From NCBI RefSeq assembly GCF_000024025.1, contig NC_013131.1, positions 8,784,229-8,848,228 on the forward strand: 64,000 bases of DNA, read 5' to 3'. This DNA comes from Catenulispora acidiphila DSM 44928 (lineage in GTDB: Bacteria > Actinomycetota > Actinomycetes > Streptomycetales > Catenulisporaceae). Below are positions 2,082 through 60,503 of this stretch, one piece after another. Position 1 is the first letter of the stretch; every line of letters begins with the position of its first letter. Below the pieces are notes generated by a model. That model was not told the origin of the DNA, did not search any database, and worked only from the letters and a program-made list of their open reading frames with translations. The translations under genes were made by a program, and so were the position numbers.

Positions 2082-2122
2082 CGGCTTCGCCGGGGTGGCA
2101 CTCGGCCTCGCGCGGGTAGTCG

Positions 2123-2132
2123 CTACTCGCTA
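2123..2132 (-). repeat. Duplicated stop-codon heptamer after pruA
   Basis: The plus-strand heptamers CTACTCG and CTAATCC are adjacent. The second holds the pruA stop (TAG on the minus strand) and the first gives another TAG 7 bp downstream in a different frame. A longer direct repeat, GCGGGTAG at 2112 and 2141, brackets the stop. Only two short copies are present, so chance is possible. Confidence 0.35.
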
Positions 2133-3788
2133 ATCCATATGCGGGTAGCGGTACTCCGTCGGCGGGACGAACGTCTCCTTGATCAAGCGCGTCGACGTCC
2201 AGCGCATGAGGTTCTGCGCCGACCCGGCCTTGTCGTTCGTGCCGGAGGACTTGGACCCGCCGAAGGGCTGCTGGCCGACCACGGCACCGGTCGGCTTGTC
2301 GTTGATGTAGAAGTTGCCGGCGGCGAAGCGCAGCACGCTCATCGCCTCAGCCACGGCCGCCCGGTCCTGCGCGATGATCGAGCCGGTGAGCGCATAGTCG
2401 GTGACGCCCTCGACGCCGCGCAGCACCCGGTCGTAGTCGCTGTCTTCGTACACGTAGACTGACAGCAGCGGGCCGAAGTACTCGGTGGAGAAGATCGCGT
2501 GCTCAGGGTTCGAGCACACCATCACCGTCGGGCGCACGAAGTAGCCGATCGAGTCGTCGGCTGTCCCGCCGGCGGCGATCCGGATGCTGTCGTCGGTGTG
2601 CGCGACGTCCAGCACCCGGCGGTGCTTGGCGAAGGCCCGCGCGTCGATCACCGCGCCCATGAAGTTCGCCAGCTCGGCCGGATCGCCCATGCTCAGGCCG
2701 TCGACCTCGGCCGAGAATTCCTCGCGCAGCCCGGCGCCGGTCCACAGCGAACGCGGGATGTAGGCGCGGGAGGCCGCCGAGCACTTCTGGCCCTGATACT
2801 CGAACGCGCCGCGGGTCAGCGCCGTCTTCAGCACCGCCTTGTCGGCGCTGGGATGGGCCAGCACGAAGTCCTTGCCGCCGGTCTCGCCGACGATGCGCGG
2901 ATAGGCGCGGTAGGCGGCGATGTTCTCCCCGACGGTGCGCCACAGGTGCTGGAAGGTCGCTGTCGAGCCGGTGAAGTGGATACCGGCCAGGTCCCGGCTG
3001 GCCATGACCACCTCGGAGACCGCCAATCCGTCGCCGGGCAGCATGTTGATCACCCCGGGCGGCAACCCCGCGGCCTCCAGCAGCCGCAGGGTGAAGTGCG
3101 CGGCGAGCTGCTGCGTCGGCGAGGGCTTCCAGATCACCGTGTTGCCCATCAGCACTGGGGCGGTCGGCAGATTGCCGGCGATCGCGGTGAAGTTGAAGGG
3201 CGTGATCGCGTAGACGAAGCCGTCCAGCGGCCGGTGGTCGGTGCGGTTCCAGATGCCGTGGGAGTTCTCCGGCGGCTGCTCGGCGAGGATCTGGCGGGCG
3301 AACTCGGCGTTGAAGCGCCAGAAGTCGATCAGCTCGCAGGCGCTGTCGATCTCGGCCTGCACCGCGGTCTTGGACTGGCCGAGCATGGTCGCCGCGTTCA
3401 AGGTGGCGCGCCAGGGACCGGAGAGCAGGTCGGCGGCCTTGAGCAGGATCGCGGCGCGGTCGTCGAAGGAGAGCGCGCGCCAGGCCGGGGCGGCGTCGCG
3501 GGCGGCGGCGACGGCCGCGCGGGCGTCGTCCTGCGTCGCGTTGTGCAGGGTGCCCAGGACCGCCTGGTGGTTGTGCGGCTGCACCACGTCGATCGGTGCG
3601 CCGCCACCGGGACGCCGGACGCCGCCGATGGTCGCGGTGAGGTCATGGCGCACGGCGGACAGCGCGGTCAGCTCCGTGATCAGGGCCGAGCGCTCGGGCG
3701 TCCCCGGCGCGTAGGAGAGCACCGGCTCGTTATACGGGGCGGGGACACTGGTGACGCCGGTGACGGACTCGTAAGCGTGCGCGGCCAT
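2130..3788 (-). CDS. pruA: 1-pyrroline-5-carboxylate dehydrogenase (L-glutamate gamma-semialdehyde dehydrogenase)
   Basis: This enzyme oxidises glutamate semialdehyde to glutamate with NAD+, the second step of proline catabolism. The aldehyde dehydrogenase fold is complete. The general base lies in GETGGKDF (Glu about 302), the catalytic cysteine in QGQKCSAASR (Cys about 336), and the C-terminal FGGSKSSGTNDKAG is typical. The N-terminal VPAPYNEPVLSYAPGTPER matches actinobacterial PruA. Start ATG 3788 gives 552 residues, close to family length; ATG 3797 is an alternative. No proline dehydrogenase (putB) lies next to it, so the first step is encoded elsewhere. Confidence 0.93.
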   Translation of the reverse strand: MAAHAYESVTGVTSVPAPYNEPVLSYAPGTPERSALITELTALSAVRHDLTATIGGVRRPGGGAPIDVVQPHNHQAVLGTLHNATQDDARAAVAAARDAAPAWRALSFDDRAAILLKAADLLSGPWRATLNAATMLGQSKTAVQAEIDSACELIDFWRFNAEFARQILAEQPPENSHGIWNRTDHRPLDGFVYAITPFNFTAIAGNLPTAPVLMGNTVIWKPSPTQQLAAHFTLRLLEAAGLPPGVINMLPGDGLAVSEVVMASRDLAGIHFTGSTATFQHLWRTVGENIAAYRAYPRIVGETGGKDFVLAHPSADKAVLKTALTRGAFEYQGQKCSAASRAYIPRSLWTGAGLREEFSAEVDGLSMGDPAELANFMGAVIDARAFAKHRRVLDVAHTDDSIRIAAGGTADDSIGYFVRPTVMVCSNPEHAIFSTEYFGPLLSVYVYEDSDYDRVLRGVEGVTDYALTGSIIAQDRAAVAEAMSVLRFAAGNFYINDKPTGAVVGQQPFGGSKSSGTNDKAGSAQNLMRWTSTRLIKETFVPPTEYRYPHMD

Positions 3789-3854
3789 GATCCGCATCCC
3801 ATCGCGGCCTGCGAGGGGGCGCCACACCATTGCGCCGATCGATGGACGCCAGGA

Positions 3855-4535
3855 TCAGCCCTCGGCGGCCATGACCTCGTCGATCAGCGCCACAGCAGCG
3901 GTCAGACTGTCCGCGATCGGCACCCCGACAGCCCGCAGCGACTGCGCGGCAGCGAACCCGCCGGAGTAGAGGATCACGCGCGCGCCGACACTGGCGGCAG
4001 CCGCGGCGTCGTCGGGCGAGTCGCCGATGAGAACCACCCGCGCAGGATCCACGCGCAGACGGGTCAGGTGGTCCTGGAGGTGCAGTCCCTTGCGCGACGG
4101 ACGCGGCGGCAGAGTGCCCTGAACCAGCTCGAAGTAATGGGCGATGCCATGGTGCTGGACGACGGGGACGAGCTTGTCGTCGTGATACATCGACAGCAGC
4201 GACTGCGAATGCCCGCGCCCGGACCACTCACGGAACAGGTCCGGCAGACCGTCGGACAGCCGAGCCTCGCGCTCATAGGCGACGTAGTACTTGTGGAAAG
4301 TGGCGTCCAGCCCCTCCCACTCCTCATCGCCGGGCTCGTGACCGAGGATGTCGGCGTAGAAGGCACGGATCGGCATCTTGATCAGCGTCCGGTACTGCTC
4401 AGCCGTTATCGCGGGCAACCCGTGATCGGTGAACGAGTCATTCGTGGAACGCAGGATGATCTCGAAGTCGTTCAGGACGGTGCCGTTCCAGTCCCAGACG
4501 AGGTGCAGCGGTTCATGATTCTTCGGCACGGTCAC
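3855..4535 (-). CDS. HAD-family phosphatase (phosphoglycolate phosphatase-like)
   Basis: The 226-residue soluble protein is probably a small-molecule phosphatase. Motif I is VWDWNGTVLND, with nucleophile Asp15 and Asn where many HADs have the second Asp, as in the DWNGT subgroup. Motif II is SLLSMY, motif III contains Lys in SRKGLHL, and motif IV is GDSPDD. A helical cap lies between motifs I and II. The start is a GTG without an obvious ribosome-binding site, so the N-terminus is uncertain. The substrate is unknown. Confidence 0.82.
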   Translation of the reverse strand: MTVPKNHEPLHLVWDWNGTVLNDFEIILRSTNDSFTDHGLPAITAEQYRTLIKMPIRAFYADILGHEPGDEEWEGLDATFHKYYVAYEREARLSDGLPDLFREWSGRGHSQSLLSMYHDDKLVPVVQHHGIAHYFELVQGTLPPRPSRKGLHLQDHLTRLRVDPARVVLIGDSPDDAAAAASVGARVILYSGGFAAAQSLRAVGVPIADSLTAAVALIDEVMAAEG

Positions 4536-59769: not shown

Positions 59770-59838
59770 GCCTGTACTGACGATCCGGGGATGCCGAAGT
59801 CATCGGTCGGCACCGGAATTCCTCCGTGTGCCGCCGGA

Positions 59839-60441
59839 TCAGGTCTTGAGCAGCAGTTCGTCGAGCTCGCGGATGACTTGCGCGGTGTCCTGGAAGAGGA
59901 TCGCGGACATGCCGAGGGCGCGAGCCGCGGCGCAGTTCGCCTCGAGGTCGTCCACGAACACGGTCTCCTCGGCCGGGATGCCGAGCCGCTCCAGACAGAG
60001 CTCGTAGATGCCGGGGTCCGGCTTCTGCATCCCGACCTCGTGCGAGTACACGATCAGGTCGGTCAGCTCGCTGAACCGGTACGCCTCCTCCTCGCGCTCG
60101 CGCGCGCCGACGAAGCTGTTGCTGATGATCGCGGTGGCGTAGCCCTCGGCGCGGCGGGCGCGCCAGTAGTCGGCCATCTCGGCGTTGTACGTGCCGAGGT
60201 ACTCGACCCAGACGTCTGCCATGTACGCCGCGAAGCGGTCCGCCGGCACCCCGAGGGCGGCGACGGACCGTTCGTGGACTTCCTCGAGCGTGATGTGGCC
60301 GAGCTCGCCGGCCTGGAAGACGGCCTCGACGCGGTTCGCCCAGCCGGCGCCGAACTCGGGCTCCCAGCGCGCCGCGGTGCCGAGGTCCGGGGTGTGCTCC
60401 AGGACCCCGCCGATGTCCAGGACTATCGCTCGGATCGGCAT
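59839..60441 (-). CDS. HAD-family hydrolase
   Basis: The 200-residue protein has motif I VLDIGGVL, where the second Asp of DxD is replaced by Gly as in some epoxide-hydrolase-type HADs, motif II ISNS, motif III Lys in MQKPDPGIY, and motif IV FVDDLEANC. A four-helix cap (about 18-85) is present. Substrate unknown. Confidence 0.83.
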   Translation of the reverse strand: MPIRAIVLDIGGVLEHTPDLGTAARWEPEFGAGWANRVEAVFQAGELGHITLEEVHERSVAALGVPADRFAAYMADVWVEYLGTYNAEMADYWRARRAEGYATAIISNSFVGAREREEEAYRFSELTDLIVYSHEVGMQKPDPGIYELCLERLGIPAEETVFVDDLEANCAAARALGMSAILFQDTAQVIRELDELLLKT

Positions 60442-60457
60442 GGGTTCTCCTAGCTCG

Positions 60458-60503
60458 TCAGGCGATACGCGCCGGGACGGTGCTCGTCAGCTGATGGGCC
60501 TCA
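60458..60503 (-). repeat. Imperfect stop-region repeats after the sugar dehydrogenase gene
   Basis: CTCGTCAGGCGAT, CTCGTCAGCTGAT and GCCTCAGGCGATG carry TCA at 60458, 60487 and 60501. The last is the stop codon of the gene. Spacing is irregular (29 and 14 bp). Confidence 0.5.

What the first reader, a model, noticed from the sequence alone, without database searches (positions are those of the whole stretch)
2112..60503. Recurring tandem duplication of gene stop-codon regions across the window
At the 3' ends of secA, the gene at 14634, lpqB, the RDD gene, the DUF5719 gene, whiB and the first LCP gene, a short tandem repeat starts at or runs into the stop codon, and its unit contains that stop codon. 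Weaker cases follow pruA, ahcY and the sugar dehydrogenase. Unit lengths differ (7, 9, 11, 12, 14, 130 bp) and the unit sequences are unrelated, so this is not one dispersed element; the shared property is position. Several periods are not multiples of 3, which puts extra stop codons in other frames. Possible explanations are a replication or repair process that duplicates gene ends, or selection for back-up stops and 3'-end spacing. I know of no named system that describes this.
Basis: partly seen in the sequence, partly recalled or inferred. Interest (0 to 1): 0.75.

Follow-up and report, generated by a model that had tools for sequence, protein, structure and literature searches.

The report
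Tandem repeats crowd gene ends
In this soil actinobacterium, and in Streptomyces DNA sampled for comparison, short stretches just after (and sometimes across) gene stop codons are repeatedly copied in tandem and soon replaced; most likely they pile up there because such copying leaves the protein unchanged.

Summary
The pattern is real and not limited to the window. The genome has the size of Catenulispora acidiphila. In 1.8 Mb outside the window, tandem arrays cross 57 of 1205 stop codons but 3 of 1271 start codons. In the first 1.6 Mb, 42 cross stops against 0.5 after shuffling. Density is 2.4/kb within 40 bp of a stop, 0.4/kb within 40 bp of a start, 0.86/kb beyond 160 bp from genes.

The stop codon itself is not the target: 42 crossings match the 41.6 expected from random sliding within the same spacers. 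Periods ignore the reading frame at stops (33 of 103 in frame) but obey it inside genes (682 of 768). Back-up in-frame stops are thus not supported, and stop-to-hairpin spacing is longer where an array sits.

Arrays differ between orthologs of sister species; in the clearest cases one species has a local duplication of what the other has once. The bias recurs in Streptomyces-type genomes, more weakly elsewhere.

Best reading: ordinary tandem duplication tolerated at gene 3' ends. A true 3'-end mutation hotspot is not excluded. Y. pestis VNTRs and Borg repeats are close precedents.

The parts
9420..9471 (-). 11-bp x 4.7 tandem array crossing the secA stop (9460-9462)
   Evidence: TRF; position relative to stop; SecA by Pfam; stop checked
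9374..9401 (-). secA terminator-like hairpin downstream of the array
   Evidence: sequence; a like hairpin readable by eye in 8 of 10 Catenulispora secA tails printed
14371..14660 (-). 130-bp x 2.2 tandem array running into the 3' end of the conserved gene 14634-15467 (stop 14634-14636)
   Evidence: TRF; gene found in 10 of 10 genomes of the genus incl. own
18416..18447 (-).
   Evidence: TRF; species comparison; no Pfam hit
37457..37493 (+). 9-bp x 4.1 tandem array starting on the last base of the RDD gene stop (37455-37457)
   Evidence: TRF; RDD by Pfam
42162..42207 (-). 14-bp x 3.3 tandem array crossing the DUF5719 gene stop (42204-42206); no array of score >=36 in the 9 congeneric orthologs
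   Evidence: TRF
42110..42142 (.). perfect hairpin (terminator-like) just beyond the DUF5719 array
   Evidence: sequence; a related hairpin follows the stop in two congeners (L088, L089), by eye
48100..48163 (-). 12-bp x 5.4 tandem array starting 14 bp after the whiB stop (48178-48180)
   Evidence: TRF; Whib by Pfam
57629..57673 (+). 12-bp x 3.8 tandem array starting 2 bp after the first LCP gene stop (57624-57626)
   Evidence: TRF; LytR_cpsA_psr by Pfam
57676..57712 (.). hairpin (terminator-like) just beyond the LCP array
   Evidence: sequence

Best explanation
These are short, unrelated minisatellite-like arrays made by an ordinary, genome-wide tandem duplication process (replication slippage or similar; the enzymology is inferred). 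They accumulate in the 3' flank because a duplication there, including one that spans the stop, leaves the first copy and so the protein unchanged, whereas duplications at starts or out of frame inside genes are removed. Arrays are born locally, change copy number and are lost within the divergence of sister species. Shown: position bias, frame filter inside genes, absence of frame preference at stops, lineage-specific presence, a few cases of local origin. Inferred: slippage as the mechanism, and that selection rather than a higher birth rate makes most of the 3' excess.
For: Crossing stops 57/1205, starts 3/1271 (Fisher p 8e-15). Crossings at stops equal random sliding within the same spacers (42 vs 41.6), starts are depleted (2 vs 21.2). 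Arrays reach less than one unit into the coding region in 39 of 46 crossing cases and less than 1.25 units in 44 of 46 (window included), as expected if the first copy is the preserved gene tail. Period mod 3 is neutral at stops (33 of 103 in frame) but in frame for 682 of 768 arrays wholly inside genes, so selection filters what arises. The 3' flank is less conserved between own genome and sister G008 than the 5' flank (67-74% against 80-86% identity within 80 bp, array bases left out, 62 spacers). 121 ortholog pairs: array near the stop in both 10, own only 22, G008 only 14, neither 75; in the 10 'both' rows (9 spacers, one convergent spacer counted twice) the TRF periods all differ. By eye, G001 has two copies where G002 (94% nt identity at that locus) has one at the lpqB stop; G003 and G009 (91%) have an 18-bp array of 4.2 and 2.3 copies there.
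Against: Density falls with distance from the stop even on the 3' side (2.42, 1.79, 1.39, 0.82 per kb at score 40; at score 70 the fall is no longer clear), and array 5' edges are commonest at -12..+24 (periods up to 60), which plain tolerance does not predict. At about equal conservation (72-73% identity, 80-160 bp from the gene) array coverage is 12.4% on the 3' side and 4.6% on the 5' side. In G013, the Streptomyces loci and G008, though not in own genome or G012, arrays are 2-3 times rarer behind the first hairpin than before it (22 and 20 stop sides). In Y. pestis the examples given of VNTRs overlapping 3' ends had low diversity, which the authors took as a sign of constraint (PMC3689786 section 12).
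Confidence: 0.62

Rival explanations
1. A real mutational hotspot: DNA just behind the translation stop, where the transcript is free of ribosomes and transcription ends, suffers more tandem duplications (for example through R-loops, stalled forks or terminator events). Tolerance then adds to a higher birth rate.
For: Gradient away from the stop, clear for tandem and modest for convergent genes; 2.7-fold 3' excess at matched conservation; short tandem spacers of 30-60 bp carry near-stop arrays as often (12.4% of 89) as longer ones (11.0-13.6%); coverage before against after the first hairpin 11.4% and 3.8% in G013, 13.7% and 5.9% in the Streptomyces loci, 6.6% and 3.4% in G008 (small samples).
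Against: No excess at the stop over random sliding; no G-over-C skew in arrays (0.013 against -0.002 in array-free flank); no leading/lagging difference (53 of 410 against 52 of 358 genes, p=0.53, ori assumed at coordinate 0, block at 5.2 Mb left out); in own genome coverage before and after hairpins is alike (13.6% and 12.1%), likewise in G012 (4.1% and 4.1%). No expression data were available.
Confidence: 0.27
2. Selection keeps the arrays because they supply extra stop codons or a useful distance between stop and terminator.
For: Many crossing arrays do place further stop triplets downstream (by eye in the list); arrays sit between stop and hairpin at secA, DUF5719 and LCP.
Against: No in-frame preference, 33 of 103; orthologs do without: 75 of 121 pairs have no array in either species, DUF5719 has one in 1 of 10 species; spacing is longer, not fixed, with arrays (median 59 bp, n=25, against 31 bp, n=127); whiB, LCP and other arrays do not contain the stop.
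Confidence: 0.05
3. A dispersed mobile or MIRU/REP-like element family inserted at stop codons.
For: MIRUs are recalled (not read here) to sit at stop/start junctions.
Against: Units unrelated: 1 of 61 crossing arrays has a match elsewhere in 1.86 Mb at E 1e-3; periods from 6 to 130 bp; single-copy precursors in sister species in a few cases.
Confidence: 0.03
4. Artefact of gene calling, of repeat-finder thresholds or of assembly.
For: Gene ends come from a home-made gene finder; TRF score 40 is low.
Against: The finder recovered 67 of 68 complete annotated stops in 100 kb of a Streptomyces plasmid; shuffled spacers give about 0.1 array/kb at score 40, and the 3'-over-5' bias holds at 50 and 70; own genome is a single contig and the bias recurs in other genomes.
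Confidence: 0.02

Closest known systems
VNTRs overlapping gene ends in Yersinia pestis (PMC3689786; passages and section 12 read)
   Same: 16 of 88 VNTRs overlap start (6, one of them a CRISPR) or stop (10) codons; the authors say copy change at a stop might have less effect on the ORF, and that VNTRs within 400 bp of 5' ends vary less.
   Different: No 3' enrichment was measured in what I read; the cited 3'-overlapping VNTRs had low diversity; here the odds ratio of stop over start crossing is about 21 and presence differs between sister species.
Tandem repeats of archaeal Borg elements (PMC9879509; abstract and passages read)
   Different: Borg units are perfect and rich in adenine; these are imperfect (median match 87.5% near stops, 12% perfect) and have the composition of the flank, and lie in bacterial chromosomes.
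MIRU/VNTR loci of mycobacteria (recalled; only a search listing)
   Same: Tandem units at gene junctions with variable copy number.
   Different: MIRUs are recalled as one related family of tens of bp; here units are unrelated and 6-130 bp.
TAACTGA direct repeats of Beggiatoaceae (PMC4679880; abstract and outline read)
   Same: Short intergenic direct repeats placed relative to genes.
   Different: One fixed heptamer, in that genome mostly just upstream of putative starts.

Membership tests
minisatellite / VNTR | head-to-tail copies of a unit of about 6 bp or more | tested here: met
   TRF
minisatellite / VNTR | copy number varies among close relatives | tested here: met
   lpqB: G003 x4.2 and G009 x2.3 of an 18-bp unit; G001 two copies, G002 one by eye. 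Between species only; strains of one species were not compared
MIRU / REP / other dispersed repeat | unit sequence shared between loci | tested here: not met
   1 of 61 crossing arrays matches elsewhere in 1.86 Mb
Borg-type tandem repeats | perfect, adenine-rich units | tested here: not met
   12% perfect near stops; composition equals that of the flank
Borg-type tandem repeats | frame kept inside ORFs, not between genes | tested here: met
   682 of 768 in coding interiors; 33 of 103 at stops
phase-variation (contingency) repeats | units of 1-5 nt in promoters or reading frames | tested here: not met
   crossing periods 6-130 bp, starts avoided
selected back-up stops | extra stops kept in the reading frame | tested here: not met
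   33 of 103 in frame, p=0.83

The most novel reading that the evidence does not exclude
In this group of actinobacteria the stretch from the translation stop onward is a true mutational hotspot for de novo tandem duplication, tied to the loss of ribosome cover or to transcription ending, so gene 3' ends are continually rewritten while stop and terminator stay fixed.
Probability: 0.22. Interest if true: 0.75.

Novelty: new variant of a known kind. Interest (0 to 1): 0.5.

Why it matters
In the sample, 140 of 979 gene 3' ends with a spacer of at least 30 bp (about one in seven) carry an array starting before +24 of the stop. That makes such genomes a natural record of small tandem duplications, offers several hundred candidate strain-typing loci per genome (extrapolated from the sample), and makes 'mutation bias or tolerance' directly testable in harmless soil bacteria. 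It also warns that 3' elements predicted from one species can be transient repeats.

Tried and rejected
Rejected: in-frame back-up stops, fixed spacing, dispersed element, leading/lagging strand effect (ori position assumed), G-skew as a sign of R-loops, significant co-occurrence at orthologs (10/22/14/75, p=0.07), perfect ('young') repeats being more biased (perfect fraction 0.12 near stops, 0.11 near starts, 0.09 in coding, 0.10 deep). TAA stops seem over-represented among crossing arrays (11 of 57 against 8% of genes); not followed up. Rows dropped: the window was left out of the counts quoted and of the frame and stop-codon counts, because the idea came from it; it is included and in the skew, coding-interior, identity and dispersal counts. 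Of the 80 SecA loci, L094 (4 kb) was left out (79 of 80 used). A few of the 121 ortholog pairs are weak (down to 27% identity), and an array in a convergent spacer is counted for both neighbours. One lpqB ortholog (L264) has only 3 bases after the stop and says nothing. E. coli gene calls (131) are fewer than the annotated genes, and calls in other phyla were not checked against annotation.
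Full report
What the window is. It lies at C1:8784229-8848228 of a single-contig genome of 10,467,782 bp, the size given for Catenulispora acidiphila ID 139908 in PMC3035231 Table 3 (passages read); the name rests on that match in size.

Window check. TRF and genes from a home-made hexamer gene finder were combined. 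The seven strong cases are all real arrays near a stop; in four the array includes the stop codon, in one it touches it, in two it starts 2 and 14 bp beyond. The three weak cases show no array at TRF score 30. Gene families are (8 of 10 with a fitting Pfam hit). The finder was checked on annotated Streptomyces plasmid DNA: 67 of 68 complete annotated stops recovered, the two extra calls being genes cut by the ends.

Genome test. With the window left out and four 400-kb blocks, arrays of score 40 or more have densities of 2.42, 1.79, 1.39 and 0.82 per kb at 0-40, 40-80, 80-160 and >160 bp on the stop side, and 0.41, 0.82, 1.09 and 0.90 per kb on the start side; dinucleotide-shuffled spacers (6 shuffles) give 0.06-0.17. 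Arrays cross 42 stops (shuffled 0.5) and 2 starts (shuffled 0.3). At score 70 they cross 15 stops and no start, but the fall with distance on the stop side is no longer clear (0.58, 0.95, 0.70, 0.44). Adding 200 kb gives 57 of 1205 stops and 3 of 1271 starts (Fisher p 8e-15). 140 of 979 genes with a spacer of at least 30 bp have an array starting before +24.

Is the stop the target? Sliding each array at random within its own spacer predicts 41.6 stop crossings (42 seen) and 21.2 start crossings (2 seen). So stops are hit as often as other positions of the same spacers, and starts are avoided. Array 5' edges are commonest from -12 to +24 (3.7, 3.7 and 2.6 per kb in the three 12-bp bins, then 1.0-2.0 out to +96), so there is a shallow gradient, not a stop-codon signature. 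Crossing arrays reach less than one unit into the gene in 39 of 46 cases and less than 1.25 units in 44 of 46.

Frame and function. Periods of arrays crossing stops have remainders 0/1/2 on division by three in 33/29/41 of 103 cases over own and related genomes, against 682/41/45 of 768 arrays wholly inside genes of own genome. In-frame back-up stops are therefore not selected. In 152 of 911 stop-side spacers of own genome with a perfect stem of 9 or more within 200 bp, arrays cover 13.6% before, 5.4% inside and 12.1% after the hairpin, and spacing is longer with an array (median 59 bp, n=25, against 31 bp, n=127). In G013, the Streptomyces loci and G008 coverage drops behind the hairpin (11.4 to 3.8%, 13.7 to 5.9%, 6.6 to 3.4%; 44, 22 and 20 stop sides), in G012 it does not (4.1 and 4.1%, 45 stop sides).

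Turnover. In 121 ortholog pairs with sister species G008 (median 89% amino-acid identity) arrays near the stop are present in both for 10, own only 22, G008 only 14, neither 75. Where both have one, periods differ; one pair (b8.6:173938) copies the same conserved gene tail in both. At b8.6:133798 the first unit is shared with G008 and repeated only in own genome (by eye). At secA the last residues before the TGA are the same in the ten Catenulispora tails read and the terminator is readable in 8 of 10, while 5 of 10 have an array of score 36 or more starting within 90 bp of the stop, of periods 11, 19, 16, 18 and 14. At lpqB, 4 of 9 readable tails have an array of score above 50 (a fifth has one of score 37 further off); by eye G001 has two copies where G002 has one, and G003 and G009 have an 18-bp array with different copy number. 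At DUF5719 only own genome has an array, 1 of 10.

Spread. G013 (same order, other family): 14/269 stops, 0/273 starts; G008: 9/139, 1/143; G012 (same family, other genus): 5/308, 1/312. Streptomyces and Streptacidiphilus SecA neighbourhoods: 9/119, 0/107; other high-GC Actinobacteria: 9/367, 2/385; lower-GC Actinobacteria: 1/177, 0/165; other phyla with GC under 45%: 4/138, 0/138; other phyla with higher GC: 0/143, 0/137 (79 of 80 loci). A Streptomyces cadmiisoli plasmid, 100 kb: 1/59, 0/59; E. coli, 150 kb: 0/104, 0/112. So the rate differs even within the family, and is not a fixed trait of Streptomyces replicons.

Mechanism. The same duplication process appears to act everywhere: inside genes selection removes out-of-frame copies, at starts it removes nearly all, and behind stops little is removed because the first copy keeps the protein. 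This explains most of the pattern. What it does not explain is the extra density close to stops and the 2.7-fold 3' excess at matched conservation. A birth-rate bias near gene ends is therefore a live alternative; the strand and skew tests gave it no support, the hairpin test was mixed, and expression could not be tested.

Literature. Searches and 74 of an open-access library listed no paper, by title and abstract start, on a 3'-end bias of tandem repeats in Actinobacteria; several of these lists were capped and subscription papers are not covered. The closest are Y. pestis VNTRs (PMC3689786) and Borg repeats (PMC9879509), both read in part. Passages of PMC6749651 (satellites in prokaryotes) and PMC2884548 (small variable segments) say nothing on this bias in what I saw.

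Noticed in passing
window 8123-9459: The 1.3-kb convergent spacer between the gene ending at 8122 and secA holds several further tandem arrays (75 bp x 3.2 at 8737-8975, 42 bp x 2.4 at 8991-9096, 16 bp x 3.1 at 9292-9341).
   Followed up: no
window 14322-14370: A 16-bp x 3.1 array directly abuts the 130-bp array in the same convergent spacer.
   Followed up: no
genome C1 about 8908051 (outside the window): About six imperfect copies of a 103-bp unit repeat the C-terminal coding end of a gene beyond its stop; in G008 a 147-bp unit holding a copy of a gene tail is doubled behind another gene (g8:77669-78905).
   Followed up: partly
window about 42048-42080 and loci L084-L089: An AT-rich palindrome (TATATAAGG...CCTTATATA) lies behind the DUF5719 gene in several Catenulispora species although the rest of the spacer differs (by eye).
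   Followed up: no
own genome sample: Near-stop arrays are half as common behind genes with the least typical codon use (20 of 245 against 40 of 244, 39 of 245 and 41 of 245) and rarer behind the longest genes (23 of 245).
   Followed up: no
own genome sample: TAA is over-represented among stops crossed by arrays (11 of 57 against 8% of genes).
   Followed up: no
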